From an uncultured Enterobacterales bacterium (GTDB taxonomy: Bacteria > Pseudomonadota > Gammaproteobacteria > Enterobacterales > CALYQQ01), in the NCBI GenBank assembly GCA_945288535.1, contig CALYQQ010000008.1, forward strand, positions 1-64,000: DNA of 64,000 nucleotides, written 5' to 3'. The position numbers were made by a program, and so were the translations under genes. Shown here one piece after another: positions 36,143-56,800 of the stretch. Each line of letters begins with the position of its first letter. The first letter of the stretch is position 1. Under the pieces are notes generated by a model. It saw nothing but the letters and a program-made list of their open reading frames with translations, did no database searches and was not told where the DNA came from.

Positions 36143-37554
36143 TTCATTTTACTTCAGGGAACATCATACTTTGTTAATCGGCCAATATGTATTCAAAAAA
36201 GCAGTAATATTGTGATTAAACACAGTATTATTGCGAAAAGCGATATATTTCTACTTGCGTAAATATCGTTGATTGGAATTTGACTAGCATCAAAAAAGAT
36301 CGACTCGCCTTGCTAAACTATGATACTTCGGCTACTGATAAGAAATACTTATCTATCTTTCCGGCAAGAGTACTGCATCTGGCGCGATTATTGCCTGAAA
36401 CCCATTGAGCGACCAGAATGGGTCATCCTGGTATAAATTTCTTCAATTGTGGAAGAGATAAGCTCACATTGGATCTGCTCAGCATGTATATCCGATATTA
36501 ACATAAGCTTATACGCTATTTGGGGGAGCCCGCGCAAAAATATTGTATATGATAAGCTTCTTATTGCAGATGACGCTATACCTGTTTTAATTATGCATTG
36601 CTGAAAAGAGGAACGGCGTCGGGTAGCTGGCCGATTATTTTAAAAGCCCAAGGACGAATAGCAATAAGATAGGTGGTAAGTCTAATAGCGGCATCTTGTG
36701 GCCACTTTATTCAGGGGTAGCGAAACTAATCAATGAGGTAGTAACGATGGCATTCTAGATGAAAATAACCTGCCGGATCCACCGAGCTTTATCGCATACT
36801 GGAGATAAATGAAGAAAAAAGAGAAGACCGAGTGCAGAGGCTCAAATCGAATGGTCACGAATCGCAAGGTAGTGTCAAAGCGTAATCATCAATGTCAATG
36901 AACAGCGAGCAGGGGAGACACATTAGATAATAATCCTGAAAAACACTAAAATCTAGTATACGATAGCGAGGACTGGTCTATAGTAAGCCAATGTTATTTA
37001 ATCTTTTTCAGCAGTGTAAATATGGTAGCACCTAGTCTATTCTGCCCAACTATCCACAATTGAGTGCTAGGATCAGCTTGGCTTACTCCCTATCTGCAGC
37101 GAATCAGGCATTGACCCTTTACGGCACTTTATTTAGCAAAATGATTAGATTATTTCATCGACATATCTTCATCACGATAGCCACTGATACACATCATGCT
37201 TGCAGTTAGATGAATATAGCTACTCACTCAAATACCCATTACGGACGGAATATACCTGATACTGTGCATCGGTTGTACCACTTAAGCAATAACCAAATTA
37301 TTAGATTTATCAGGAAATAATTAAAAGTTCTTACCTTCTGGTAAGGTTGATACGCGCATTGAATACTGAGAAGCTATAATTAAATCCATATTAGCAATTA
37401 ATATGCTTGTTTTTTTCATTATTAAATGCGATGCTTATATCACAGACAAGGTCATCTATTAATCTTTATTGATTAGATGTCTTTGTATACAATTATGCCT
37501 ACCCTATATTTTACGGTTATTACATTTGGATTCATCTTCTGTTGGAGCATGGCT
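36143..37554. other. Gene-free, less AT-rich spacer with likely gene remnants
   Basis: About 1.4 kb between the PTS locus and the antibiotic cluster. It is less AT-rich than the typical spacers of this window, and all frames are interrupted. Protein-like pieces on the plus strand include MGHPGINFFNCGRDKLTLDL near 36420-36480 and LADYFKSPRTNSNKIGGKS near 36630-36690. None could be assigned to a family. It is most likely eroded coding DNA, perhaps including mobile-element remnants, but no terminal inverted repeats or transposase motif was seen. Confidence 0.4.
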
Positions 37555-38736
37555 ATGTTAACAGAAAAATGGGTTCCATTACCCTTTATCCTTGTTGTTT
37601 CCTTATTAGCTGGGTGCATAGAAGTGGATATGTCTGTTCCCAGCTTTCCTGATATGGCCGTAAGCTTTGGTGTTTCTGAAGGTTATATTCAGCGTACGAT
37701 TACTTATAACTTCTTGGGATTTGTATTTGGTGCGTTGATTTATGGTCCATTGTCAGAGTCGATTGGTCGGCGTAAAACTATGCTGATCGGTGGTGCAATC
37801 ATGCTATTGGGTGCTCTAGGATGTACCTACGCTACTTCAATTGATTTCTTGATGCTATCTCGTTTTATGCAAGGACTAGGTGCTTGTACGCCAGTAGTCG
37901 TTGTTTACGCGATTATAGCAGATCGTTATCAAGGGGCGACAATGTATAGTATGATCGGCCTAGTGAATGCTTTCATCTCAATCTTTATGTCATTGGCCCC
38001 AATCATTGGTGGCTGGATTAACAAGTATTGGGGGTGGCGTGGGAACTATGCAGTTGTCGCAGTGATTACTACAGCGGCTGTCCTACTGGAGTTGTTCTTC
38101 CTACCGGAAACAAAAAAAGAAAAAACGGCATTCGATTTTAAAACGATTTTGAGAAGCTATTTACGACTGACGGCAAATTTCCGATTTATTCAATTGTCGT
38201 TAATTCCCTCCCTTTTCTTTGCTGCTTATATGGTATTCATTGCTTCTAGTGCTTTTCTTTATCGTGAAACTTTTGCATTATCGCTGCCATCATTTGTGGT
38301 TCACTTCTTTATTATTGTATCATCTTTTTCAATACCTAGCCTCTTTTCCGCTCGTATTATTGCGATGTTAGGTGGCGATAAACGCGCTGAGAAAATCGGC
38401 ATGATATTAGCCATCGTCAGCATTTTTTCTTTGTTACTCGCAACGACGCCTTATGCGATTACCATACTAATGAGTCTGTTCTGTTTTGGTTTTGCAATTT
38501 GCTATCCGACCTTGTTCGCTCGTTCTATGAGTGTCTATCCTGAAATCTATGGGGTGGCAGCTTCCTATACCATGAGTATACGATCGTTGCTTGTCGTAGC
38601 GATTACGGGAATGGCCAGCTATATTTTTGTTGGTCGGCCAGAAGAAATGAGTTATGTGATGGCAAGCGTAGTAGGGTTGGTTGTATTGTTATCAATGTTA
38701 AGTTTTATAGCAGTTCCAAGTAAAGTTAAAGAATAG
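37555..38736 (+). CDS. MFS drug-efflux transporter, Bcr/CflA type; likely self-resistance exporter
   Basis: This major facilitator antiporter has twelve predicted membrane segments. With this start it has 393 residues. The Bcr/CflA pattern is visible: DMSVPSFPDMAVSFGVSEG, LIYGPLSESIGRRKTMLIGG (the MFS loop 2-3 motif), FMQGLGACTPVVVVYAI, and ETKKEKTAF before the central loop. The open frame extends to an ATG at 37477, adding 26 hydrophobic residues, but GGAG lies 7 bases before the ATG at 37555. It heads the antibiotic cluster in the same orientation. Althiomycin producers carry such an exporter, so a resistance role is the natural inference. Confidence 0.88.
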   Translation: MLTEKWVPLPFILVVSLLAGCIEVDMSVPSFPDMAVSFGVSEGYIQRTITYNFLGFVFGALIYGPLSESIGRRKTMLIGGAIMLLGALGCTYATSIDFLMLSRFMQGLGACTPVVVVYAIIADRYQGATMYSMIGLVNAFISIFMSLAPIIGGWINKYWGWRGNYAVVAVITTAAVLLELFFLPETKKEKTAFDFKTILRSYLRLTANFRFIQLSLIPSLFFAAYMVFIASSAFLYRETFALSLPSFVVHFFIIVSSFSIPSLFSARIIAMLGGDKRAEKIGMILAIVSIFSLLLATTPYAITILMSLFCFGFAICYPTLFARSMSVYPEIYGVAASYTMSIRSLLVVAITGMASYIFVGRPEEMSYVMASVVGLVVLLSMLSFIAVPSKVKE

Positions 38737-38833: not shown

Positions 38834-39790
38834 ATGGAAAGTGAAACTATGGTTTCAAAAGGTGGACTTTCTGCCGCTTATACTGATAAATGGGAGCAAC
38901 GCTCATCAATAAGAACTCGCCCTGGTAAATTTATCGATTTTACTATTCCTGGTGCGTTCTTCCCCGAAAAAAATCAACCAATATTTTTGACTGATGTGAT
39001 GATCAGCATAGATAATAAACGAAAGTCAAAAATACTTACGCAGTCACTATTTAAATATCTCAATGATATCGTTAATCTTGAAATTAAACTTATTAACTCC
39101 GCATGTAATAAGATTATTTACAACGATCTTGCAATAAAATTCGATGAACAGATTAAGTTAAATGCGTATACCGTGATCATCGATGAATATTATCATGTTT
39201 ATATCGCTAGACACATGATTAATCAACTGAGGGAGCACGATGCCGATATGGGTACATTAAGCTACCCAGACTCGGATGCTTATGTCGCTGTTGTAGAAGT
39301 GATGAGGCGACTTCCGGAACGTTACCATGACATTTTTGAGATCATTGCAGTATGCATTTTCGAAACGACTCTAGTGAGAGAACTCGTAGAGTTTTTTAAT
39401 AGTGAAGACGTTCATCCATCAATAAAATATTACGTTAATGACCATATGAACGATGAGTCTAGACACTATATTTTCTTTCTCGAATTACTTGAATATATTT
39501 GGAAAAGGCTTGGAGAAAATGATCGAGATATTATCGGTGGGCAAATAGCTGATTTCGTAAAAATGTATCTGAATGTAGAGTCAGAAAAACAATTTAATAT
39601 TGAGCTATTATCGAAAATCACTCATGACCATAAAGCAAGTGAGGAATCAATTAATAAGGTTTATCGCGGTTTTGAAGTAACGCCAGATGTCCCCATTGTT
39701 AAGAATGTGTTGATGGCTTTAAAACGAACGAATATTTTGGACTCATCGACAGTGCGGCAGGGATTTGAAAACATTGGGTGGATAATTTAA
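38834..39790 (+). CDS. AurF/CmlI-type diiron N-oxygenase
   Basis: Members of this non-haem diiron family oxidise amines stepwise to hydroxylamines, nitroso or nitro groups (AurF, CmlI). The 318-residue product has the iron-ligand motifs of that family: IDEYYHVYIARH (E-x2-H), FETTLVRELVEF, and MNDESRHYIFFLELLEYIW (D-E-x2-H). In the cluster the expected job is N-oxidation of the amino group of the loading glycine to the oxime found at one end of althiomycin. Substrate and timing are inferred. GGAG precedes the ATG by 8 bases. The spacing of 97 bases to the exporter allows one transcript. Confidence 0.82.
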   Translation: MESETMVSKGGLSAAYTDKWEQRSSIRTRPGKFIDFTIPGAFFPEKNQPIFLTDVMISIDNKRKSKILTQSLFKYLNDIVNLEIKLINSACNKIIYNDLAIKFDEQIKLNAYTVIIDEYYHVYIARHMINQLREHDADMGTLSYPDSDAYVAVVEVMRRLPERYHDIFEIIAVCIFETTLVRELVEFFNSEDVHPSIKYYVNDHMNDESRHYIFFLELLEYIWKRLGENDRDIIGGQIADFVKMYLNVESEKQFNIELLSKITHDHKASEESINKVYRGFEVTPDVPIVKNVLMALKRTNILDSSTVRQGFENIGWII

Positions 39791-40743: not shown

Positions 40744-41985
40744 ATGAAAATCCTGAACATTCTTGTCAGTTATACCTTAGAACCGTTGCGTAGCCATATT
40801 GTTCGTTATTTGCTGGATGCAGGCCATTTTGTTTATTTGATTAATCTAAGTGATGCTGAACGAACACGCTGGTCAGATTCACCGCATAATCTCTTTTGCT
40901 ATTCCGATACGCGTGATCAGTATATCGATTATGAACTTTGCCAGGAAGAAAGTATCTTGATAGGTGTTCCTTCTGTCCGATTAGCGGTTTTTGTCGAACC
41001 ACAAAATGTCATATTTCAGATTTATGTTGAAGAAAATGGCAATATTAGGGCATTAGCGAAGTGTTCTCTACCATGGCATAAAGCTCGGCAAATCTTATCA
41101 CAACAAGTCTTGGGCGAACTATTTATTGACGGTATCGTCATGCTTAGCCGTGAGGCTAAAGACCTCGATATAGCTTTACATGAAGGACCAAACCAGGTTA
41201 AGGATTGGCTGGTCGCTCAGTATGTAGTGCAGCAAGAGTACAGGGCGCTGAAAAGTGATGAACAGCGCTATGGTTGCTTTAATTTAAAAGATGAGGTGTC
41301 TGTCGTTAATGATACTGCTACTATTCAACTATCGATCGATGGCGTGACACAATGGCAACAGATTTTTTTGTTAGCTTTCCAATTGCAGTTTTTACTCAAT
41401 GCACGGCGGCCTGCGCTTTATGCATTACAATTGCAAGATCAACAACGTAGTAGCAAAGTATTACGGTTACTTAAAGGAACAGAAACATATGTAGAGCTAT
41501 CATCCTGGTTGGCGAGGACCATGAAGGGTGATCCGGAGAACCTATTCTACGAATCTCATTATGACGATTGTTTTTTATCTGTAGTGGGTGTAGATATTAT
41601 AGTGGATGAAGGTGTTACCGATATGCTTGTAGCTCCTGTCAGGATTATCTGGAACAGTAAGAGCTATACGCTCAGCCTTCAATTTTACGGGGAAAATCTA
41701 TTTTTCGATATTTTTGCTGCCAATGTCGATGAATTTATGACAGCGATTACAGTATTTTTGCGTAACGAGGGGGATATAGATACGTTGACTAGCGTATCTG
41801 AAAATATTTATCAACGCTATTATACAAAAATTAATGCCACGCAATGTGAGTATCCAAGACAAACGATTGTTGACCTGTTTGAACAACAGGTGCTATTGCT
41901 TAACGATCATCCTGCTGTAATAACGGAAAATAAGACAGTAAGTTATCGGACACTACAGCTACAGGCTAGCCGCCTAGCCGCCTAG
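40744..41985 (+). CDS. NRPS loading subunit, 5' part, cut by frameshift
   Basis: The open frame gives 413 residues and stops inside an adenylation domain. Residues about 1-355 are a region I cannot assign; it starts MKILNILVSYTLEPLRSHIV and contains beta-strand-rich segments late in the region that faintly recall the tail of a condensation fold. From about residue 365 the adenylation domain begins (VDLFEQQVLLLNDHPAVITE, then VSYRTLQLQASRLA). A tandem 8-bp duplication at 41970-41985 then shifts the frame into TAG. Without it the frame joins the next entry to give one protein of 2376 residues. As it stands, this part should be catalytically inert. Confidence 0.85.
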   Translation: MKILNILVSYTLEPLRSHIVRYLLDAGHFVYLINLSDAERTRWSDSPHNLFCYSDTRDQYIDYELCQEESILIGVPSVRLAVFVEPQNVIFQIYVEENGNIRALAKCSLPWHKARQILSQQVLGELFIDGIVMLSREAKDLDIALHEGPNQVKDWLVAQYVVQQEYRALKSDEQRYGCFNLKDEVSVVNDTATIQLSIDGVTQWQQIFLLAFQLQFLLNARRPALYALQLQDQQRSSKVLRLLKGTETYVELSSWLARTMKGDPENLFYESHYDDCFLSVVGVDIIVDEGVTDMLVAPVRIIWNSKSYTLSLQFYGENLFFDIFAANVDEFMTAITVFLRNEGDIDTLTSVSENIYQRYYTKINATQCEYPRQTIVDLFEQQVLLLNDHPAVITENKTVSYRTLQLQASRLAA

Positions 41986-41986
41986 C
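41966..41986 (+). repeat. 8-bp tandem duplication (CCGCCTAG x2) causing the NRPS frameshift
   Basis: CCGCCTAG occurs twice head to tail (41970-41977 and 41978-41985), with the 8-base period extending from 41966 to 41986. The second copy supplies the in-frame TAG at 41983-41985. Deleting one copy makes the reading pass through QASRLADYLQRQYDLVPGDK, which is exactly what an adenylation domain should read at this point. The repeat could expand or contract by replication slippage. Confidence 0.93.
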
Positions 41987-42014
41987 TGACTATCTGCAAC
42001 GCCAATATGACCTA

Positions 42015-45000
42015 GTGCCTGGCGATAAAATTGCTTTAATAATGCCGCGCGAGGCGGAGCTGGTAATATGTTTGATCGCCGTGCTTAAGTTAGGGTGTGC
42101 TTATATTCCAATTGATAACCATGCACCTGTGGTGAGGACCTATTCTATTTTGGATGATGCTCAGCCTACATTAATCATTGGTGAGCATATTCAACCTGCT
42201 GGTAGTCTACCACAAGGGGCAAATTATTTGGATTGGTACGATTATATTACTTCTCCATTTGCTGGTGTTGACGGCTGTAACGATTTCCCATCCCAGGCTG
42301 ACGTTTCGTCACTAGCCTATATTATTTACACATCAGGAACGACAGGTAAACCCAAAGGGGTTGCTGTAGAACACCGTAGCTTTGTAAATATCGCTAGCGA
42401 TATTTCTCGACGTATGTCTTTGACGCATTATGACCGTTTTTTAGCCATCACTACGTTAGCATTTGATATTTCAACACTGGAAATATTTATGCCTCTTATG
42501 TTTGGTGCCACAGTAGTATTAACTGAACAGAAGACGTTGCTGGCGAAGAATGACTTACCGGACTTTATCGACCGCTATTCCATAAGTCTAATGCAAGGAA
42601 CACCTTCTTTTTGGCATCAGGTCTCTCAGCAATATGTCGATACAAAATTACCCGTTCGAGCCTTATGTGGTGGAGAAGCATTGCCATATGTAGTAGCACG
42701 TTGGCTATCAGAAAATACTGAGCATGCGTGGAATGTGTATGGACCCACTGAAACGACCGTTTGGTCCACAGCGGTAGAACTCCTGCCAGGTATTGATAAA
42801 GTTACCATCGGGCGCCCGTTGGCAAATACCCAGTGTTTTGTATTAGACGAACAGCGACGTTTACTTCCTCCTGGCGTGATCGGAGAAATGTATATTTCCG
42901 GATTAGGTGTTGCTCGAGGTTACTATGGCAATGAACGTCAAACACAAGCAAGCTTTTTACCGAACATTTTCGTTAGTACACCCTCCGTCTGGTTTGGCCC
43001 TGTAATGTACAAAACAGGCGATCGCGTACGTTATTTGCCTGAAGGTAATTTTGAATATCTTAGCCGATTGGATAACCAGATCAAATTGCGGGGACATCGG
43101 ATCGAGCTGGGTGAAATAGAGTCTGTTTTACGACACTATCCTGGGATGCAACAGGTTATTGTAAATTTACAAAAGGGCAGTGAAGATCAACAGGCATTTC
43201 TGGTTGCTTATTATCAGGCACAATCGCCAGTAACACGACAACAGTTGCAGGATTATCTGGTGACTCGACTCCCTGACTACATGCTTCCTAGCGCATATAT
43301 GTATTTACCCAAGCTCCCTTTAAATATGAATGGCAAAGTAGATCGAAACGCTTTGCCGGCGGTGCAACCACAAGATAAGACATATTATGTGGCACCAGAA
43401 AATGAAATCCAGCGATGCCTATGCCAGCTATTTCAAGACGTATTAGGAAGCGAAAGTGGACGAGTTGGCATTACAGATGATTTTTTTGCTTTGGGAGGAA
43501 ATAGTCTTTCGGCTATTCGATTGGTAAACAGAATAAACGGTGAGCTTCAGTGCGATTTGAAAGTTAAAGATATTTTTGAAAGAAAAACTATAGCCAAATT
43601 AACCTCACTGGTAGCTGCAGGGCGTGGCACTTTCCTTTATCAAGATTACCAGATTTCGCAATGTGATAAAACTAACCTTTATAGTCCATTTCCACTAAAT
43701 AATGTTCAGCAATCTTATTATCTGGGAAGAATGAAAAGCTTTGATCTCAGCGAAATTTCTACCCATATCTATAATGAGTTTATTTTTGACTATCTAGATC
43801 ACGACAAATTAGAACGTGCTTATAATCAACTTATAATGCGCCATCCTACGTTGCGTACTGTATTTGAAGATGGTGAGCAACGATTCTTGCCTGAGGTAGC
43901 ACATTACAAAATAGATTACTACTCACTGAGAAATGAAGATGAGCTACTCGCTCTACGTGCAAAGTATTCGCATAAAGTTTATAGCCCAGATCGTTATCCA
44001 CTATTCGATATTTTCCTAAGCAAGTATCAAGGAAAATACCTTCTACATGTCAGTTTTGATGCAATTATTATTGACATGACTAGTTTTAAAATATTATTCA
44101 GCGAGTGGATCGCGTTATATAACGACGAAAATCTAGTGCTGCCGACATTGAACATCAGTTACCGCGATTATCAGTTGCAGTATGAACGTTTACGTAGCAG
44201 TAACTTATTTAAGCGGGCTCAGCAATATTGGTTACAGAAAATTGATGATTTTACCTTAGAAACTGGATTGCCATTAGCTTCGTATCCCTCCAGACTTGAT
44301 AAACCAATCTTCCGACGTTTATCTACGACGATACCAATGTCGAACTGGCAAAAAATTGTCGACAAATGCCAGCGTTTCAATATTAGCCCGACAGCTCTGA
44401 TAATTGAGCTCTACAGTAGAACACTGTGCTATTGGTCTGGTCAGGACAGTTTCTGTCTTAATTTAACACTGTTTAACCGTTTGCCGTTACATCCTCAGAT
44501 CGAGCAAGTTATTGGTGATTTTACCGTTTTAAGCCTATTCCATTATCAACGTAAACACGGCGTAACAATGAGCGAGCAGCTATCGGCGATTCACCGCACA
44601 TTGCTTAATGATATCGACAATAATTTATTTGATGGTATAGACGTACAGCGTTTGTTAAAACAACGGCAAAATTTGCCTGCCAATACAGTTATTGCACCGG
44701 TTGTACTAACCAGTGTACTCGGCATGAACAATAAAGAAAGTATGTTTGAATTACCACTCAATGAAGAGTATCGCGGTATTCAGTATGCGATTTCTCAAAC
44801 GTCCCAGGTGTGGCTCGATCATAAAGCTTATGAAAATGATGAAGGATTTATTGCTGAATGGGATTACGTCGAACAGTTGTTTGAAGCAAAAACCATCAAA
44901 GCCATGCACGAAAGCTATTGCGCTTTAATTCAATGGGTAGCGGAACATAATTGGGAAACTATGTCATTTCAGCAACCCGAACTTCCGGTAGAACAAGCAA

Positions 45001-47882
45001 ACGCGATCATGCGTTGGAACACCACACAAAGTACGGTATCGGAACAAACATTACATGGACTATTTCTTTGCTCTTTGGCATTACCGCAAATAGCCGAACG
45101 TATTGCGGTAATAGAAACTGAGGACAAACGCCACTATACCTATGCCAAATTGGAGCATGACAGCAACACGTTGGGATGCGCATTACTGCGGTATACCAAG
45201 GGAGAGAAAGGGCATATTATTGGCATTCTAATAGAAAAAGGTTATCTGCAAACCGTTGCAACAATCGGGATCATGAGAAGTGGTGGTGCTTATTTGCCGT
45301 TACATATTGAATGGCCATGGGAGCGTATCCGCGATATCTTGCAACAAGCTGAATGTGATATCTTGTTGCTTTCCGCTCGACAATGTCATGTTATGGCAAA
45401 TGAGCTGGCAACGTTGTCGTCAGAAATCACAATTATGGTGTTGGATGAAATCTTAGTGTCAGCGCAAGAATATTTATCGATGGAAGTTGCCTGGCCAAGC
45501 GTTAAGGCTAATGATTTAGCCTACATTATTTTTACCTCTGGCTCTACAGGAAAACCAAAAGGGGTAGCCATCAATCACCAGGGCGCAGTTAATACTATCA
45601 TTGCGGTTAACCAACGTTGGTCGATCGGCAGAGACGATCGAATCTTGGCACTGTCCGATCTGAGTTTTGATCTTTCCGTTTACGATTTATTTGGCCTGTT
45701 GGCTGTAGGTGGCAGTATAGTAATTCCTTCCCAGCATGAGACCAAAGCACCACAAGCTTGGCTGGCTGCACTACAGCAATATGACGTGACTCTCTGGAAC
45801 ACGGTGCCACAACTGGCGGCGCTACTGGTCGATGAAGTGGAACCTAGAACGCGAAAACTCTCTCAATTACGACTGTTCCTATTGAGTGGTGATTGGTTGC
45901 CCCTCAATTTGCCTGACCGTTTAAAAGCACAATCTCCAGCAAGTAAAATTGTAAGTTTGGGGGGAGCCACAGAGGGGAGTATTTGGTCTATTTGGTATGA
46001 AATCGACCGAGTACATGCGAATTGGAAAAGCATTCCTTATGGTGTCGCCATGCCAAATCAGCAAATGTGGATACTAGATGAGTGGGGACATACGTGTCCT
46101 TTTGGTGTGACCGGCGAAATACATATTGGTGGACTTGGTATTGCTCAAGGATATTGGCAGGCTGAGGCATTGACTCGGGAACGTTTTATTTATCATTCAA
46201 CTTATGGTCGACTATACAAAACAGGCGATCTTGGTCGCTGGTCGGCAGAAGGTTATATTGAGTTCCTCGGCCGAAAAGATGCCCAAATTAAACTTAATGG
46301 TTACCGTGTAGAACTGGAGGATATTGAAAATAATCTAAACCAACTACCCGGAATACGACAGGCGATTGTACGACTTAATGACGGTGAGCTTGTCGCATAC
46401 ATTGTCCCCGAAGCACAACAGCCGGTGCCAATCTATTTTGCTAACCGTGATGCATTTGTTCTTTCTTTACCAGCAATACGTCAAGATTTACAACCTTTAC
46501 GGACGATACCTTATCCGTTGGATGAAACACTGTATCGTACCCGAAAAAGCTTTCGCCAGTTTACTTCAGAGATGTTATCTATCAAAGCCATTAGTGATCT
46601 TTATGAGGCGCTACCGGCGTGGTTAACACGCCAGGTGGCACAAAAGGGAACTGAACTACCATCGACTTCTCTGGCTGGATTATTGGCAGTTTGCGCAGGT
46701 TTTCGGTTGTCGCAGCGCGCTTTACCTAAATATCGCTATCCTTCAGCTAGCAGCCTTTATGCTGTACAAGTTTATCTGGGACTCCCCGTAGCGATAGGGG
46801 AATACGCCGCAGGCTATTACTATTACCATCCGTTGGAACAGCGTCTATATCAAGCAGAAGGGCTAGAGGAACAATCTGGACCGTATCTTGATTTGGTCGT
46901 TCATTGGGAAACAATTATATCTTTATATGCTGAACGTGCATTTGCTTTAGCTCAGATAGAGGTAGGTCACATGCTGGCCTTGCTAACTGGCTATCTCCAG
47001 TCTTTAGGCGTAGCTTACTCTGTTAATCCTGTGGATGCCGTTTCACCTAACGACGGTGTATTAGCGTGCCGGATCTATCTTGGTACACATACTACTATTT
47101 TACCAGCACAAATCGATATTAATTTTAGTGTGATGGAAAAGCAGGGAAATACCTACGTTACACGCGCATCAAAACAACATTATTGCTTGGAAGAAACTTC
47201 TATATTAGCTGAATCATCAGATGTATACGGCGTGCTGCGGTTATCTCAGTTGTTGTTGCAGATCCATGGCACAAAAGATGCGTACCATTATCAGGCTAGT
47301 GGCTGGATGATGCAGCAATTTAGTACGCTCGCCAGCCAGCGACAAATTGGTGGCTGCATTCTTGGAATAACACCTGCCGAAGATACACTGTGCAGCATGG
47401 CAATAGGTTATATACGGCCCGAAGATGAATCAGTTTTTGACGTACCTGCAATGACTATTTCGACGACCCACGTGATTAGACAGCATCTAGCGCGTCGTTT
47501 GCCAAACTATATGTTACCGCAGCACGTTACTCTGATCCAAGAAGTTCCCCTGTCTAACAACGGTAAAGTCGATACAGCACGTTTACCAAAAAGCGTCAAG
47601 CATAGCGAATGTCTGGCTCCGCGTAGTGATGATGAGATACGAATGCGTCGACTTTGGGCAGAGCTTTTAGATAAGCATGAAGAGCGAATCGGTTGTGATC
47701 AAAGCTTTTTTACTCAAGGGGGAAACTCGCTTTTGGCTATGCGTTTAGTCCGCAAGATCAGACTTTTGACAGGAAATGAGATACGCCTAGAAGATCTGTA
47801 TAACAACAATACGGTTCAGGACATGGCTGCATGGGTCACTGGACAATCCTGTGGCAATGGCAGAGAAGAAGGGGTGTTATAA
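42015..47882 (+). CDS. NRPS loading subunit, main part: A(Gly)-T-Cy-A(Cys)-Ox-T
   Basis: The open frame (1955 residues) begins at a GTG that is really an internal valine codon without a ribosome binding site. Order: remainder of A1 (YIIYTSGTTGKPKGV near 42330, YGPTETTVWS; specificity residues read DILQLGVVW, glycine-like); carrier T1 with GGNSLS (Ser codon 43502); heterocyclization domain with D-x4-D in FDAIIIDM near 44058; A2 with code DLYNLSLIW, the cysteine code; an FMN-type oxidase inserted between A8 and A10 (about 46400-47450; YRYPSASSLYAVQ, GYYYYHPLEQRLY); carrier T2 with GGNSLL (Ser codon 47727). It would form glycyl-thiazole. Whether it is translated depends on the frameshift just upstream. 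Confidence 0.92.
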   Translation: MPGDKIALIMPREAELVICLIAVLKLGCAYIPIDNHAPVVRTYSILDDAQPTLIIGEHIQPAGSLPQGANYLDWYDYITSPFAGVDGCNDFPSQADVSSLAYIIYTSGTTGKPKGVAVEHRSFVNIASDISRRMSLTHYDRFLAITTLAFDISTLEIFMPLMFGATVVLTEQKTLLAKNDLPDFIDRYSISLMQGTPSFWHQVSQQYVDTKLPVRALCGGEALPYVVARWLSENTEHAWNVYGPTETTVWSTAVELLPGIDKVTIGRPLANTQCFVLDEQRRLLPPGVIGEMYISGLGVARGYYGNERQTQASFLPNIFVSTPSVWFGPVMYKTGDRVRYLPEGNFEYLSRLDNQIKLRGHRIELGEIESVLRHYPGMQQVIVNLQKGSEDQQAFLVAYYQAQSPVTRQQLQDYLVTRLPDYMLPSAYMYLPKLPLNMNGKVDRNALPAVQPQDKTYYVAPENEIQRCLCQLFQDVLGSESGRVGITDDFFALGGNSLSAIRLVNRINGELQCDLKVKDIFERKTIAKLTSLVAAGRGTFLYQDYQISQCDKTNLYSPFPLNNVQQSYYLGRMKSFDLSEISTHIYNEFIFDYLDHDKLERAYNQLIMRHPTLRTVFEDGEQRFLPEVAHYKIDYYSLRNEDELLALRAKYSHKVYSPDRYPLFDIFLSKYQGKYLLHVSFDAIIIDMTSFKILFSEWIALYNDENLVLPTLNISYRDYQLQYERLRSSNLFKRAQQYWLQKIDDFTLETGLPLASYPSRLDKPIFRRLSTTIPMSNWQKIVDKCQRFNISPTALIIELYSRTLCYWSGQDSFCLNLTLFNRLPLHPQIEQVIGDFTVLSLFHYQRKHGVTMSEQLSAIHRTLLNDIDNNLFDGIDVQRLLKQRQNLPANTVIAPVVLTSVLGMNNKESMFELPLNEEYRGIQYAISQTSQVWLDHKAYENDEGFIAEWDYVEQLFEAKTIKAMHESYCALIQWVAEHNWETMSFQQPELPVEQANAIMRWNTTQSTVSEQTLHGLFLCSLALPQIAERIAVIETEDKRHYTYAKLEHDSNTLGCALLRYTKGEKGHIIGILIEKGYLQTVATIGIMRSGGAYLPLHIEWPWERIRDILQQAECDILLLSARQCHVMANELATLSSEITIMVLDEILVSAQEYLSMEVAWPSVKANDLAYIIFTSGSTGKPKGVAINHQGAVNTIIAVNQRWSIGRDDRILALSDLSFDLSVYDLFGLLAVGGSIVIPSQHETKAPQAWLAALQQYDVTLWNTVPQLAALLVDEVEPRTRKLSQLRLFLLSGDWLPLNLPDRLKAQSPASKIVSLGGATEGSIWSIWYEIDRVHANWKSIPYGVAMPNQQMWILDEWGHTCPFGVTGEIHIGGLGIAQGYWQAEALTRERFIYHSTYGRLYKTGDLGRWSAEGYIEFLGRKDAQIKLNGYRVELEDIENNLNQLPGIRQAIVRLNDGELVAYIVPEAQQPVPIYFANRDAFVLSLPAIRQDLQPLRTIPYPLDETLYRTRKSFRQFTSEMLSIKAISDLYEALPAWLTRQVAQKGTELPSTSLAGLLAVCAGFRLSQRALPKYRYPSASSLYAVQVYLGLPVAIGEYAAGYYYYHPLEQRLYQAEGLEEQSGPYLDLVVHWETIISLYAERAFALAQIEVGHMLALLTGYLQSLGVAYSVNPVDAVSPNDGVLACRIYLGTHTTILPAQIDINFSVMEKQGNTYVTRASKQHYCLEETSILAESSDVYGVLRLSQLLLQIHGTKDAYHYQASGWMMQQFSTLASQRQIGGCILGITPAEDTLCSMAIGYIRPEDESVFDVPAMTISTTHVIRQHLARRLPNYMLPQHVTLIQEVPLSNNGKVDTARLPKSVKHSECLAPRSDDEIRMRRLWAELLDKHEERIGCDQSFFTQGGNSLLAMRLVRKIRLLTGNEIRLEDLYNNNTVQDMAAWVTGQSCGNGREEGVL

Positions 47883-47884
47883 TC

Positions 47885-50800
47885 ATGTTGACTGATTTAC
47901 TGAATAATCTGAAAAAAAATCATATTTTATTGTGGGCTAAAGCAGATAATCAGTTGGGTTTTTCTGCCGATAAGGATCTTGGTTTTAATGCCGATTTGAA
48001 GGCTGAAGTCATGGCACGTAAAGACGAATTGATGACGCTATTGCAGGCTAACGGTGTCATCAGTGAACAACATGCGAAGGAAAAGCCTTTTCTAAGGCTG
48101 CCACCTCATTGTTGGCCAGTTATGTTGGACTCAATTCAGCAAGGCATGTATCTACAAAGTGAAATCGACGGTCTGCCGTATACTTATACAGTACCATTGT
48201 TCATTTGGTTGGCGCAGGTGGATATTGAGCGCATGCAAAGTGCACTACAAAACTTTTTAAAAGATCAGCCGATTCTGCGTCAATCGATTGATCACAATAT
48301 GAAGCGCATTTTTCTTGCACCGGAGCAGTTTGTACTAGAAGTTGAAAAGATTTCTTGGTTCGAACTGGAAAACAAAAAGCGAACATTGGCACAGCAAGTA
48401 TTTCCCCTACCCGAAGGCCAGTTTGCACGATTTGTACTATTGATGCGAACTGGAACACAAGAGGCCGTATTAGCGTGCATTCACCACCATATGTTATCTG
48501 ATGCCTCTTCCGTCCAGTATTTCGTTCATCGTTTGCTGAGCATGTATGCTATACCTTCTTTACCAGCACAACCTGAAGTGGGATATCTGGATTACTCGGC
48601 ATATCAACAATGGCAAATACGGCAAGATGATGTCCAGGCATTTAGAAAATCGTTGGCTATCAGGTTGAATCAAGCTGAACCGCCAGCATTACGACAGCGT
48701 CATCTTTTAGGCGTTGAAAATCGCGCATTGTTCACTCAGGCTAGCCTAACGTCGGAGATCGTAGCGGATTTAACTCAGGTATGTGGCGAAAAGGGACTAA
48801 CACTCTACTCTCTGTTGTTTACAATGTTTGCCCATGTATTGCGGACCTTTAGCGGTCAAGATAGTGATTTTCCTATCGCGTTGACGGTGATGAATCGTCC
48901 TGAAATGTTTAGTCGTGCTATTGGACCTTTTATTAGCACTATGCCGGTTATCACCATATTGAGATCTGACAAAAGTATCCTAAGTAATGTTCAACGTATT
49001 CAGCATGATATCTTGCAGTTGCAAGAGTATCCTTGGCTAAATATTGGACATTTGCTTCCGGAGATCGACGGCGGTGCAGCACGTATTAATGAGCTGGTTC
49101 AGTTATTATTTACTTTTCATAACTTTGAAAGCGATGACATTGCTCTACCTAATGTAGAATATCATCTTGAGCCTTATCCCGATCTAGCGGAAAAGTTTGG
49201 CATATCGTTATTTGCTGTTCAACGAGATGGCAAAATTGATTTTACATTAACAGCAGCCGAAAATCGCTATGAAGAAGAGTACATTCGAAATATACTTACG
49301 ACCTTCGTGTATGCGCTAGAGCAATTTAAACGACAATCATGGAATACACAGCTGGAGCAAATCGATTTAATCCTGCCTACTCAGCGTCAGCAGGCATTAT
49401 TCGAGTGGAATAATACACGTTGTAATTATTCAGAGAAGGCACATATTGCCGCTTTATTGGAAAGACAAGTAGCGCTGACACCTGATAATATTGCCTGTGC
49501 CGATCGACATCGACAATTGACATATTGCCAGTTGAATCAACAAGCCAATCAGCTGGCAGTTGTATTATCATCGCGTGGGGTCAAGCATGGTACATATGTT
49601 GTATTGTGTTTAGATCGCAGTGTCGAATTGTTAATTAGCATTTGGGCGATCCTCAAATTGGGTGCTGTCTATTTGCCTGTTGATCCTGCATTTCCCGATG
49701 AGCGCCTCGATTACATTCTTCAGGATAGTCAGGCTAACGTGATTATTTGTCATCAGGCATATCGACACCGGTTAATAAACGAAAGACGGCGAGTCATAGT
49801 GCTAGATGATGAATCGCTGCGCAATGAGCTTAGTCAGCTGAATGATAAAAATGTGAGACGTCAGATATCACCAAACGATCTGGCTTATATCATTTATACC
49901 TCTGGGACTACAGGGCAACCTAAAGGTGTGATGTGCACACACAGCGGTTTGATAAACCGTATTCAATGGATGAATAAATCCTATCCACTGACGGAAACCG
50001 ATCGGGTATTACAAAAAACACCGTATATTTTCGACGTCTCTGTATGGGAACTGATTTGGGCTTCTTTTTACGGTGCTAATATCATTTTTGCTGATCCGGA
50101 TGGGCACAAGGATGCAAACTATCTGATAGATTTGATCGAACGCGAAACTATCACCGTATTACATTTTGTACCGTCAATGTTAGCGGCTTTTACGGAGACG
50201 TTACAGGGGATTCAACGTGAGCGAAATATTTGTTTATCCAGCTTACGCTATGTATTCTGCAGTGGTGAAGAACTCAAATTGTCCCAGGTCAAAGGAATCA
50301 AGCGATGTTTACCCCATATCGCCTTACATAATCTCTATGGTCCGACTGAAGCTTCCATCGATGTGCTGTATTTCGACTGTAATGATCCAGATATAGATAA
50401 TGTCCTGATCGGGCGGCCAATCGATAATATGAAGGTTTTGGTCTTGGACAAAAGACAGAGATTATTGCCACCTGGTGCTATAGGCGAGCTCTATCTTTCA
50501 GGAGTAGGACTGGCTAGAGGCTATTTGAATAAAGCATCGCTGACGGCGGAAAAATTTATCGCTAATCCATTCTGTAACGAATGGGATGAAGGGACAGATG
50601 ATTATGCCTATTTATATAAAACGGGCGATCTGGTTTATCAGCGGAATGATGGACAAATTGTTTATGTTGGCCGTAATGATTTTCAGGTAAAAATACGCGG
50701 ATATCGCATTGAATTAGGTGAAATCGTCCAGCGCCTCGAAGCATTTGACACAGTGAACCAGGCAGTAGTACTAGTCTATCAACAACCCCATCCTCGACTT

Positions 50801-53800
50801 ATAGCCTATTACACAGCACAATCGCCATTGCCAGAAGGATCTCTTCAACTATTTTTGTCCACTACATTGCCTGAGTATATGATACCAGAGAATTTTATCT
50901 GGATAGAAAAATGGCCTGTTACGATAAATGGCAAATTGGATCGTCGTGCCCTTCCTGAACCGTCCCAACTGTCCATACAAGAATGTGTTACACCACAGTC
51001 AAAGACAGAAGCGCAGATCGCGGCCATTGTTGCGGAAATGATGGGAATTGATAAAGCACTTTTCAGCTGTGAGGCTAACCTTTATCAATTAGGACTAGAT
51101 AGCATCATGGCGATTAAGCTGGTGAGTAAATTGCGCCAGTTCATGGGTATTTCGATCAGGGTGAAAGACGTATTCGCCTGTAAAACTGTGCGCTCACTCT
51201 ATCAGCGCCTCTCTCAGTGTAACGAGCAGGTAATGATTAAAAGTAAGCAAGAGCAAGGCATATTGGTTGGTGAATTTCCATTATTGCCAATTCAAAACTG
51301 GTTTTTCGACTGCGCATTTCCCTATCCGAACCATTGGAACCAGGCGTTTATGATAGATGTTCCGGCACTGAATATTGATCGCTTGCGCAAGGCACTATAC
51401 ACAGTAGTTCAACATCATGATGCACTACGTCTGACATTTACGACTAATAATTCGTCATCTCATTGGCGCCAATTTTATCAGCCGATAACTGAGGCTGACA
51501 ATATCGAGCTGCTGTATCATCATATCGATCATTCGGTACCGCAATCGCAAGAGACGTTGTCTGCCCTATTGACTAAATGGCAAAGTGATATCGATCTAAC
51601 TCGTGGGCCACTTTATCGTTTTGGTTATATAACCGGGGTTGATAATGGTCGAGCACGCATTTTCTGTGCGTGTCATCATTTGGTAATCGATAGCGTCAGT
51701 TGGGGTATTTTGGCCCATGATCTGGCTAATGCCTACTATGGTAAAAATCTTGGAGATAAAGGAACGAGTTATCGGCAATGGGCAGAACACTTCGAGCACT
51801 ATTGTACTGAGCACGCAGAGGAGGCATCTTACTGGCAAGAAATAATGACAAATTATCGTCATATTACGTTACCTGAGGCACGTGGTACCGCGATGGCATA
51901 TAACCGCTGCACATTGTCGATCAAAGTAACGCAGGCGCTGCAAACGGAGGGAATGCGCGCTTTTAATGCCAAAATCGACGAATGTTTGTTGGCCTGTGCA
52001 GGCGTTATACTTACTCAATATTTTAATGGGAAGCTGACGCATGTGACCGTTGAAGGGCACGGACGTGAAGATATAAATGGTGCGCTGGATGTTCATCGTT
52101 GCATTGGATGGTTTACGTCACTTTATCCTTGTATACTCTCATCCGACGCCAATCCGGTAACGCAGTTACAAGCGGTTAAAGCACAACTACGAGGTACCCC
52201 TCATCAAGGTGTTGGATTTGGTGCTTTTGCCCGTAAATTAGAGTTGCCATTGCCTAACGTATGTTTCAATTATCTGGGACAAGTGACCACTTCAGATGAA
52301 AAAGATTGGACACTTGTTATGTCGCCAATCGGTGAAACACGCCATCCTGATAATGGTTTGCCTTTCGGTATTACGCTCTTTAGCTACATCGAGCAAGGCC
52401 AGTTGCAACTCGAAGTGGTCAGTGGTCTGCCTAGAGAGCAAAATCAACAATTACTAGAGGCCTGGACGTCGTCTATCAACACGTTAATAACGTGCTGTAA
52501 GGAACAGGTAAGAACGCAATACGGTCCCGGAGATTTTATCAATGTTGCGGATGAACGCGATTTACAGCATCTTCCGCTTCAAGGAAGTAAGGAAAACGGC
52601 AATAGCTTCGCTATGACCGAGATTCAAAAAGCCTATCTGATTGGACGTTTTGAAAACTATGAGATCGGCAACGTTGCCAATCATATCTACAATGAGTTTG
52701 TTTTTCCGCATCTTGATGATAAGCGCCTAGAATGGGCGATTAACCAATTAATTGCTCTCTGTCCAGTACTGAGAACGCTGTATGACGTAGAAAATATGAC
52801 TCAGCATTTTATCTCGATATCACAAGCTGGCCAGTATTTACTAAGGGTAAATGATCTGCGACTCGACGATGAAACTGCTGCATTGATAAGTGTGCGTGAG
52901 CGCCTATCACATCAGATCTATCAGGTCGATCGTTTTCCCTTATTTACTTTTGAGATCAGCCGACTACGTGATCGCGATGTGTTACATATCAGCCTTGATC
53001 TAATTTTATTAGATGTACAAAGCCGTTTGATACTGTATCAATTGCTTAACGCACTTTATCGAGGCAATACTTTGCCGCGGTTAACGACAGTGACTTTTAA
53101 AGATTACCAAGATCATCTGGTTCATCTGAAAGTTTCCCGCTGGTATCAACGAGATCGTGCTTATTGGCAGGATAAACTAGCTGACATGCCTTTACGGCCG
53201 AATTTACCGCTCAAGGTACCGTCGACTACAGTTGAACGCCCACACTTCGCAGAGCATACATTATATGTAGATAAACAACGTTGGCAAGCTTTTAAACGCC
53301 AGGTCCAGCATTATCAGGTTTCATACTCTTCAGTATTACTTAGTCTTTATGGCTATCTTATCGCACGATATTCTGGCAATAGCGAGTTTCTCATTACCAT
53401 GACATTGTTTAATCGTTATGCGGTTTGTAAGGATGTGAATGACATTTTGGGCGATTTTACCTCGACAAATCTATTCCACTTTCGTGATGCGGGTGAAGAT
53501 CTATTCCGTACTATCGAAATGACACATAAACGTATGTGGGACGATATTCAGCATGCGCTATACAGTGGCTTAAATGTACAGCGCGATTTAGTAAAGCTGC
53601 GTGAGTTAGATCGCCATTCAGCAGTGTCGCCGTTAATCTTTACGGGTGTTATAGGGCAACAAACTAACGACTGGGATAAACATGCCTATCTAGAAGATAA
53701 CGAGATGCGCGATCAGCGATATTGGTGTGCTCAAACTTCTCAGGCTTGGATCGACCTGCAAGCTATTGAAGTTGATGGCCGCTTTATGAGCAAATGGCTT

Positions 53801-56800
53801 TATGTTGAACAGTTGTTTGATGAAAAAACTATTGCGCATTTGAATTATACCTATTGTCGTTTGATAACACTGTTAGCGCAACAACCTTGGGAAACGCGTT
53901 TAGGATGCGAAAACTATTTACCTGACGCGCAAAGAGAAATGATGTATCAGGCAAATAGCATTTCTCAGCCTATCAGCGAAGCTACTCTGTTTAGTGCGTT
54001 CGATCTATTGGCAACGCAGACGCAATACCGGGATATGATAGCCGTATATGATGAAAAAGCAGCAATTGGCATAACTTATGGCCAATTAAAACAGGACAGT
54101 GACGCTTTGGCTATGTCAGGGGGAGGTTCATCTGCGCCACTAATTGCTATATTGGCAGAAAAAAGCTATGCGCAGATCTGTGCCTGCCTGGCCGTTATGA
54201 AGGCCGGTAAGGGCTATTTACCTTTGCATGTGGAATGGCCGACGAAGCGTATCGTGAATATTTTACAGCAGGCTGGTATAGAAGAAATCTGGTTGACTCG
54301 AGCGCAATCGGGGCGTGCGGATATCGGTACACTGCGTAAAGAAGGGTATCAAATTCTAATCATAGAAGATAGATTGGATGAAGTGATTACTTTACAACCG
54401 CTCTTTAGCTTACCACAAGTGAGTGCGGCTAATGTGGCCTATGTCATTTTCACTTCCGGATCCACTGGACAGCCAAAAGGGGTCACAATCGATCATCGTG
54501 GCGCAGTGAATACGCTACAAGCGGTAAATCAACGTCTAAGATTGACCTCAGAAGACGTCTTGTTCGCATTGTCTGAATTAAGCTTCGATCTTTCCGTCTA
54601 TGATATTTTTGGCGCACTTAGCGTTGGTGCTGAAATCGTTTTACCAGCACAAGAGAATGTAAAAGATCCTGATCAGTGGTTACCACTGCTGGCTCAGCGT
54701 GGGGTCACTATCTGGAATAGTGTGCCACAGCTTGCCGGCTTGCTCGCTGATACTGTGACACGGCAAAGATACTCACTGCCGAAGTTGCGGGCATTTTTAA
54801 TGAGTGGCGATTGGATCCCATTAAATTTACCGGAAATATTACGCGCACTTTGGCCAAATGCTGATTGTATTAGTCTAGGTGGGGCGACTGAGGGCAGTAT
54901 TTGGTCTGTTTGGTTCCCGATAGAAACGATCGATCCGGCATGGCGTTCTATCCCTTATGGGACTGCGATGCCTAATCAAGCACTGTATGTTTTAGATCCG
55001 AAGGGACAGATGTGCCCCGTTGGCGTGACTGGCGAGCTCTATCTTGGTGGAATAGGCGTTGCATTAAATTATTGGCGAAATCCACAACTTACTGAAGAGC
55101 GATTTATTTTGCATCCGTCACACGGGCGCCTATACAAAACTGGCGATTTAGGGCGTTGGCATGCAGAAGGTTACGTTGAATTCTTGGGACGTAATGACTT
55201 TCAGATTAAACTACGAGGGCATCGCATTGAACTTGGCGAAATTGAAAACCGACTTCTACAATGTAGTGAAATTCATCAAGCTGTAGCACTAGTAATGGCA
55301 TTGCCCACGCCAATGCTAGTGGCGTATTATGTTGGTGATGCGAACACCGATGAGAAAATAATCCGTTCGCGACTAGCCGAGCAATTGCCGGACTATATGA
55401 TACCCTCACATTTTATCGCTTTGGACGCATTGCCACTGACGAGCAATGGCAAACTTGACCGCAACTCATTGCCGCTACCAACTAACAAAGAACAAGTAGC
55501 TTATTGCTCACCACGCGACGACTATGAATATCAACTGTGTCGGCTTTGGAGTGAGATCTTGCAAATACCAGCAGATGAACTCAGTACTCAAGCTGATTTG
55601 TTCCAGTTGGGTATTGACAGTATCGCTAGCATTCAAATGGCAGGTCGATTAAGACGAGAATTACAAATGGATGTCACATTAAAGGAGTTGCTGGCTTATC
55701 GTACTATCGCATCATTCTATGACAATATACTTGCTCGTCAACCTGTTGATAAGATTCAGGCTATTCAGCAAGAAACCGGACCCTTAAGTGGCGAGGTTCC
55801 GCTATTACCTATTCAGCAATGGTTTTTAGATCATGATCTGCCGCATAAGCAGCAATGGAACCAATATGGGCTATTGATAGCACCTGAATTAACATTGCCC
55901 CATCTAAAAAGCTTGCTGCCGAACCTTATAGCACAACATGATGCATTTAACCTACGCTTTGAAAAAGATGCTCTAGGAAAATGGCATCAATACTACCAAC
56001 CACAGGCTACACTTCCACCATGCTATGCTTTAAATATTCGTACACTACCGTTTTCTGAAGATCACCCAGATTTCGGTACTGTATTATTGCAATATTTTGC
56101 TGATTGGCAGCAGGTATTCGATATAGAAACAGGCCCGTTGGCCACGTTTGCTGTTCTTGATGGCTACGCAGACGGTAATACCAGGCTGTTTATTGCTTGC
56201 CATCACCTAATTGTCGATACGATCAGTCTTCAGGTAATCATTGATGATTTACGACGTTTAAGTCAAGGGGAAACGCTACCGGAGAAAGTTAGTAGTTACC
56301 GTCAATGGGTGAACCACCTGCAGCAAAGAGTGCAAATGAGATTACCTGAACGTGAAGCGTGGCTGGAGCAATTACCAAGAAGTGAAGTTTATGCATTGCA
56401 AGCATTAGGTGGACTCGAAACAACACAGCACACCCAGGTATGGGGAGAACGACAATCGCGTCGCTTAATACAGTATCTCGCCATGTTTGACATGCAACCT
56501 AATGATATGATCACCTGGGCGGTTAGTCGTATATTGCATGACTTGACTGGACAACGTACCTTTAGTCTATGGTTTGAAGGTCATGGAAGGCAGTCAGATG
56601 AAAAAACATTAGATATATCAAGAACAATGGGCTGGTTTACCTGTCGTTATCCGGTACGTTTGAGTTATCAAAGCGATGCCAAAGAACATTTACTCACGGT
56701 AAAAAATAACTTAAGACGTTGGTCGCAGCGCGCGGAATATTTTGCAAGCCTATGCGGTTTACCTATAGTAAGAGAGGACGGTATCAGCATTAATTATTTA

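What the first reader, a model, noticed from the sequence alone, without database searches (positions are those of the whole stretch)
38834..39790. AurF-like diiron enzyme as a candidate oxime former on a carrier-bound amino acid
The diiron motifs (E-x2-H and D-E-x2-H) place this protein near AurF/CmlI, best known for turning aryl amines into nitro groups. In this cluster the only likely target is the aliphatic amine of the loading glycine, with oxidation stopping at the oxime level. That would be an uncommon chemistry for the family.
Basis: inference. Interest (0 to 1): 0.6.

Follow-up and report, generated by a model that had tools for sequence, protein, structure and literature searches.

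The report
Althiomycin oxime-forming N-oxygenase (Alb2)
This gene is the already described enzyme (Alb2/AlmD) thought to make the oxime of the antibiotic althiomycin, sitting in a full althiomycin gene cluster whose first synthetase gene is interrupted in this genome, so the finding is sound but mostly known.

Summary
The ORF at 38834-39790 is real, intact and a diiron N-oxygenase of the AurF fold. All seven AurF metal ligands are present and invariant in 22 relatives. It is not an orphan idea: the window holds an althiomycin cluster (alb1-alb5 at 37477-63940; alb6 just outside the window), and this ORF is Alb2/AlmD, 90% identical to the Serratia bockelmannii copy. Gerc et al. 2012 already proposed Alb2 as the oxime-forming N-oxygenase and showed that deleting alb2 abolishes althiomycin without accumulation of intermediates. 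Two things are not in the finding. First, alb4, the glycine-loading synthetase, is frameshifted here by one extra copy of an 8-bp tandem repeat (near 41966-41987), so this strain probably makes no althiomycin unless the tract reverts. Second, the unnamed N-terminal domain of Alb4 models as a catalytically stripped formyltransferase-like lobe fused to the C-terminal half of a condensation domain. It is rare, and in all but one unresolved genome it occurs with an Alb2-type enzyme. It is a candidate recruitment platform, not tested.

The parts
37477..38736 (+). alb1: MFS efflux/resistance transporter (419 aa)
   Evidence: Pfam MFS_1; 87% identical to Serratia L004 copy; Alb1 gives althiomycin resistance in Serratia
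38834..39790 (+). alb2: AurF-type diiron N-oxygenase, the finding (318 aa)
   Evidence: 90% identical to Serratia L004
39806..40717 (+). alb3: SAM methyltransferase (303 aa), O-methylation of the pyrrolinone enol
   Evidence: Pfam Methyltransf_25 etc.; 87% identical to Serratia copy; Alb3 described
40744..41985 (+). alb4, 5' part (413 aa): N-terminal formyltransferase-like + half-condensation domain and the first ~60 residues of the glycine A domain, ending at a frameshift stop
41966..41987 (+). 8-bp tandem repeat (CTAGCCGC x2 + CTAGC...) with one extra copy relative to intact alb4 genes; shifts the frame, TAG stop at 41983-41985
42015..47882 (+). alb4, 3' part (1955 aa): rest of A1(Gly)-PCP-Cy-A2(Cys)-Ox-PCP
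   Evidence: Pfam, codes
47831..63940 (+). alb5: C-A(Ser)-PCP, an extra C-type domain (probably E), Cy-A(Cys)-PCP, C-A(Gly)-PCP, KS-AT-ACP-TE (5369 aa)
   Evidence: domain order also from Gerc et al.

Best explanation
The protein is Alb2 (AlmD) of an althiomycin cluster. It is a diiron N-oxygenase of the AurF fold that works in trans on the NRPS. It oxidises the free alpha-amine of the N-terminal glycine, held as a thioester on the Alb4/Alb5 assembly line, by four electrons (amine, hydroxylamine, nitroso). The nitroso compound tautomerises to the oxime because the glycine carbon still carries hydrogens; an aryl nitroso compound cannot do this, which is why AurF and CmlI go on to the nitro group. 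My preferred timing is early, on glycyl-PCP1 or glycyl-cysteinyl/thiazolyl-PCP2 of Alb4. In the sequenced strain alb4 is frameshifted, so the enzyme is probably without its substrate unless the 8-bp tract reverts. Shown by sequence or model: fold, ligands, cluster identity, glycine code, frameshift. Shown by others in Serratia: alb2 is required for althiomycin. Inferred: the four-electron stop, the substrate and the timing.
For: AurF family, fold and ligands. Alb gene order, lengths and 75-90% identity to Serratia and Xenorhabdus clusters; lengths equal Alb2 318, Alb3 303, Alb6 244 aa. A-domain codes fit Gly-Cys-Ser-Cys-Gly plus a malonyl module, as for althiomycin. Deleting alb2 in Serratia Db10 abolishes althiomycin, complementation restores it, and no intermediate accumulates, which fits action on a bound intermediate. 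No second AurF, P450 or Lys/Orn N-hydroxylase in the genome. HamC, an AurF homologue, is proposed to oxidise tethered valine. The AurF Arg thought to bind the substrate carboxylate (R96, from memory) aligns with Asp78, invariant in the 19 close relatives. Early timing: Photorhabdus L005 keeps only Alb2 plus an Alb4-like loading protein that ends after the Cy domain.
Against: No in vitro reaction of Alb2/AlmD was found in the papers held, and Cortina 2011 could not be read. Gerc et al. drew the oxidation on the module-6 intermediate and called the timing unclear. The Photorhabdus cassette may be a remnant, so it says little. Asp78 is not decisive: a HamC-like protein also has Asp there, and HamC can oxidise p-aminobenzoate. 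alb4 is broken here.
Confidence: 0.88

Rival explanations
1. Alb2 is the oxime former but acts late, on the full-length intermediate on the module-6 ACP or on the released molecule.
For: Gerc et al. drew it on the module-6 intermediate and said the timing is unclear.
Against: No amine analogue of althiomycin was detected in the alb2 mutant, which argues against action after release. A Photorhabdus locus keeps Alb2 with only a loading module and no PKS.
Confidence: 0.3
2. Alb2 makes only the hydroxylamine, and the hydroxylamine-to-oxime oxidation is done by the nitroreductase-like Ox domain of Alb4 module 2 or happens spontaneously.
For: A nitroreductase-type stretch is embedded in module 2 (weak match); the related HamC is described as giving a hydroxylamine.
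Against: That Ox domain is already assigned to thiazoline-to-thiazole oxidation; AurF-type enzymes carry out successive N-oxidations without help.
Confidence: 0.15
3. The cluster in this genome is a decaying, non-producing copy and alb2 has no function here.
For: alb4 is frameshifted by an 8-bp duplication within the first A domain. A related copy in a Bartonella queenslandensis record also has broken frames.
Against: All other genes are open, including the 5369-aa alb5 and alb6; pN/pS is low in every gene tested. An exact tandem duplication can revert. Assembly error is possible.
Confidence: 0.45

Closest known systems
Alb2 of Serratia marcescens Db10 / AlmD of Myxococcus xanthus DK897 (althiomycin)
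   Same: Same length (318 aa as Alb2), same operon position between the MFS and methyltransferase genes, same glycine-loading NRPS; 90% identity to the S. bockelmannii orthologue, 54% to a Myxococcus one
   Different: Host is another gammaproteobacterium with AT-rich DNA; the partner gene alb4 is frameshifted
AurF and CmlI (arylamine N-oxygenases)
   Same: Fold (Z 24) and all seven metal ligands
   Different: About 15% identity over the structural alignment; proposed substrate is a carrier-bound aliphatic amine and the proposed product an oxime; AurF Arg96 position is Asp
HamC / PvfB / MgoC (fragin, valdiazen, mangotoxin clusters)
   Same: AurF-type enzyme next to an NRPS; HamC is proposed to oxidise carrier-bound valine
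   Different: Only 24% identity for a HamC-like protein; the product is a hydroxylamine/diazeniumdiolate; the Alb4 N-terminal domain was not found in that record
Oxime formation on a glycine primer in necroximes and lobatamides
   Same: Oxime made from a loading glycine on an assembly line
   Different: Assigned to an in-line oxygenase domain and a DH domain, not a separate AurF-type enzyme

Membership tests
AurF-type diiron N-oxygenases (PF11583) | Profile match above curated cut-off | tested here: met
   64.7 bits against cut-off 29.6
AurF-type diiron N-oxygenases (PF11583) | Seven metal ligands (E101, E136, H139, E196, H223, E227, H230 of AurF, numbering from memory) | tested here: met
   E83, E118, H121, E177, H204, E208, H211, aligned and invariant in 22 sequences
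AurF-type diiron N-oxygenases (PF11583) | AurF/CmlI fold | tested here: met
   Model pLDDT 88.9; AurF and CmlI Z 23.7-24.4, next family about 13
AurF-type diiron N-oxygenases (PF11583) | Diiron cofactor and N-oxygenation activity | not testable with these tools
   Needs purified protein
Arylamine N-oxygenase AurF proper (NCBIfam NF045603) | Score above curated cut-off | tested here: not met
   25.7 bits against 620: not a 4-aminobenzoate oxygenase orthologue
Althiomycin cluster (alb/alm) | Gene order MFS, N-oxygenase, methyltransferase, NRPS, NRPS-PKS, thioesterase | tested here: met
   compared
Althiomycin cluster (alb/alm) | A-domain order Gly, Cys, Ser, Cys, Gly and one malonyl PKS module | tested here: met
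   Motifs read (code table from memory; A5 read least clearly; malonyl specificity of the AT not tested)
Althiomycin cluster (alb/alm) | Intact Alb4 | tested here: not met
   8-bp duplication, split into 413 and 1955 aa
Althiomycin cluster (alb/alm) | Makes althiomycin | not testable with these tools
   Needs culture and mass spectrometry

The most novel reading that the evidence does not exclude
The conserved N-terminal domain of Alb4, a formyltransferase-like lobe lacking the HxSLLP-type catalytic segment fused to the C-terminal half of a condensation domain, is a dedicated platform that brings Alb2 to the glycyl carrier. It would be a counterpart, for diiron oxygenases, of the X domain that recruits P450s in glycopeptide synthesis. 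Together Alb2 and this loading module would form a portable oxime-making cassette that recurs with other amino acids.
Probability: 0.25. Interest if true: 0.55.

Novelty: already known. Interest (0 to 1): 0.22.

Why it matters
What remains open, and is made easier to test by the comparison here, is when the amine is oxidised and whether the odd N-terminal domain of the loading synthetase recruits the oxygenase. If it does, glycine or other amino-acid oximes could be installed by moving a two-gene cassette. The broken alb4 also warns that this genome may carry a silent or phase-switching antibiotic cluster.

Tried and rejected
Arylamine target: rejected, since the core matches the althiomycin line and loads glycine. 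Alternative oxidase in the genome: no P450 and no Lys/Orn N-hydroxylase found, one AurF only; other oxidase families were not scanned. Programmed frameshift in alb4: judged unlikely, as the difference is an exact 8-bp duplication and no slippery heptamer was seen by eye in the overlap of the two frames; not tested. Foldseek alone gave no significant match for the Alb4 N-terminal domain, and Pfam and PDB sequence searches gave no credible one; the two-part reading rests on VIA-align Z of 10-12 for each half. Profile comparison of that domain with the starts of the Fischerella and Megaera synthetases was not significant. The PvfB paper was not held, and Cortina 2011 did not appear in the library searches.

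Full report
The ORF at 38834-39790 (318 aa, ATG) matches Pfam AurF well above its cut-off and aligns with AurF chains in the PDB over the metal-binding helices. All seven are invariant in an alignment of 22 sequences, relatives of 24-90% identity. A structure model from a 19-sequence alignment (mean pLDDT 88.9) matches AurF and CmlI at Z 23.7-24.4, well above the R2/monooxygenase folds at about 13.

The surroundings identify it. Upstream lies an MFS transporter, downstream a SAM methyltransferase, then two large synthetase genes. Just beyond the window, contig positions 64092-64826 hold a 244-aa ORF that reads as a type II thioesterase (read by eye and by its length and position, not by a profile search). 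This is the order and these are the lengths of alb1-alb6 for althiomycin in Serratia marcescens Db10 (Alb2 318, Alb3 303, Alb6 244 aa). Identity to a Serratia bockelmannii cluster is 87% for alb1, 90% for alb2, 87% for alb3, 75% and 83% for the two parts of alb4 and 79% for the first 657 residues of alb5. The A-domain residues read as Gly (DILQLGVVW), Cys, Ser, Cys and probably Gly, followed by a KS-AT-ACP-TE module, which is the predicted althiomycin line. The code table is from memory.

The chemistry was proposed before. Gerc et al. 2012 (PMC3445576) assigned Alb2 as an AurF-like N-oxygenase that converts the amine to the oxime. They deleted and complemented alb2, lost and regained activity, and found no accumulated intermediate, from which they argued for modification on the assembly line with unclear timing. 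An AurF homologue acting on carrier-bound valine is proposed in the ham pathway (PMC11659414), and that paper's reference list cites an in vitro reconstitution of PvfB, whose text was not held. I found no paper in the held library with a direct assay of Alb2 or AlmD.

Mechanism. The likely path is amine to hydroxylamine to nitroso, which tautomerises to the oxime because the glycine carbon bears hydrogens. This explains, without any special brake in the enzyme, why the reaction stops before nitro. That step is inference from known chemistry. AurF's substrate-carboxylate Arg96 (from memory) aligns with Asp78, which is conserved in all 19 close relatives. This fits a thioester substrate, but it is weak evidence: a HamC-like protein has the same Asp (the identity of that locus as ham is presumed, one search had no annotation), and HamC oxidises p-aminobenzoate in vitro (PMC5878181). 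No second AurF, no P450 and no Lys/Orn-type N-hydroxylase was found in the genome, with positive controls ringing in other genomes for the last two.

The partner gene is broken. Intact alb4 in Serratia and Xenorhabdus is one open frame of 2382 codons. In the window it is split into 413 and 1955 aa, because one extra 8-bp copy (CTAGCCGC repeated at 41966-41981, followed by CTAGC) shifts the frame, with a TAG at 41983-41985. The break falls about 60 residues into the first (glycine) A domain. The other alb genes are open, and pN/pS in the genes tested is 0.08-0.22 in raw proportions, with synonymous sites near saturation, so the break is likely recent. It could be a reversible slippage event, a dead gene or an assembly error; I cannot tell which.

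An unnamed domain. The first 356 residues of Alb4 match nothing credible in Pfam or PDB by sequence. A model from 12 sequences (pLDDT 84, pTM 0.77) aligns, in residues 1-148, with the N-terminal lobe of 10-formyltetrahydrofolate dehydrogenase and methionyl-tRNA formyltransferase (Z 10-11.6, about 142 residues, rmsd 3.3-3.7 A). Residues 148-355 align with the C-terminal half of condensation domains (Z up to 11.8, about 190 residues, rmsd 4.5-5 A). Foldseek itself gave no significant match, so this reading is moderate. The formyltransferase HxSLLP-type segment is absent from all 12, so formylation is unlikely. The domain was found in 15 of 20 genomes or records picked for having an Alb2-type or AurF-like gene. 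It was found in no other genome of 369 from the class or 398 from the phylum, and in two of 393 from a Streptomyces genus sample, one being a query genome. The second, G779, has no Alb2 match, with the domain near the start of one of many contigs. Two genomes, G015 and G045, have Alb2-like proteins without the domain. Since most carriers are simply althiomycin clusters, co-occurrence is partly trivial. The informative cases are Photorhabdus L005 (oxygenase plus a loading protein ending after Cy) and a Burkholderiales MAG, L018, whose loading code is DASTVGAVC rather than glycine. A recruiting role, like that of the X domain for P450s (from memory), is a hypothesis.

Verdict. An ordinary, correctly read orthologue of a known enzyme in a known cluster. 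The added value is the frameshift and the Alb4 domain.

Noticed in passing
window 41966-41987: One extra copy of an 8-bp tandem repeat frameshifts alb4 inside its first A domain; dead gene, phase switch or assembly error.
   Followed up: partly
window 40744-41812: Alb4 N-terminal domain without Pfam match; model looks like a stripped formyltransferase lobe plus half a condensation domain; rare, mostly found in genomes with Alb2-type oxygenases.
   Followed up: partly
L005 10001-15453 (Photorhabdus bodei): Alb2-like gene plus a 1424-aa loading protein (N-terminal domain, A with glycine-type code, PCP, Cy) between murJ- and argS-like genes, with no methyltransferase or PKS: remnant or minimal oxime cassette.
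   Followed up: partly
L025 9980-20798 (Fischerella plasmid): Distant AurF-like gene beside an NRPS with an aromatic-type first A code (DASTIAAVC), a histidine-decarboxylase-like gene and a tryptophan-halogenase-like gene: possible halogenated tyrosine-oxime pathway.
   Followed up: no
L026 9953-18358 (Candidatus Megaera plasmid): AurF-like gene, MATE transporter and a 2013-aa NRPS on a plasmid of a Rickettsiales symbiont.
   Followed up: no
L018 83-9853 (Burkholderiales MAG): Alb2-like gene with an NRPS bearing the Alb4-type N-terminal domain but a non-glycine code, and an ATP-grasp gene next to it.
   Followed up: no
L003 (record titled Bartonella queenslandensis AUST/NH15): alb1/alb2 83-86% identical to the window's, but alb2 holds a stop and downstream frames are broken; host or data quality is doubtful.
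   Followed up: no
window 36000-64000: The synthetase part of the alb cluster is 41-45% G+C against 25-36% in most of the left flank, suggesting horizontal acquisition.
   Followed up: no
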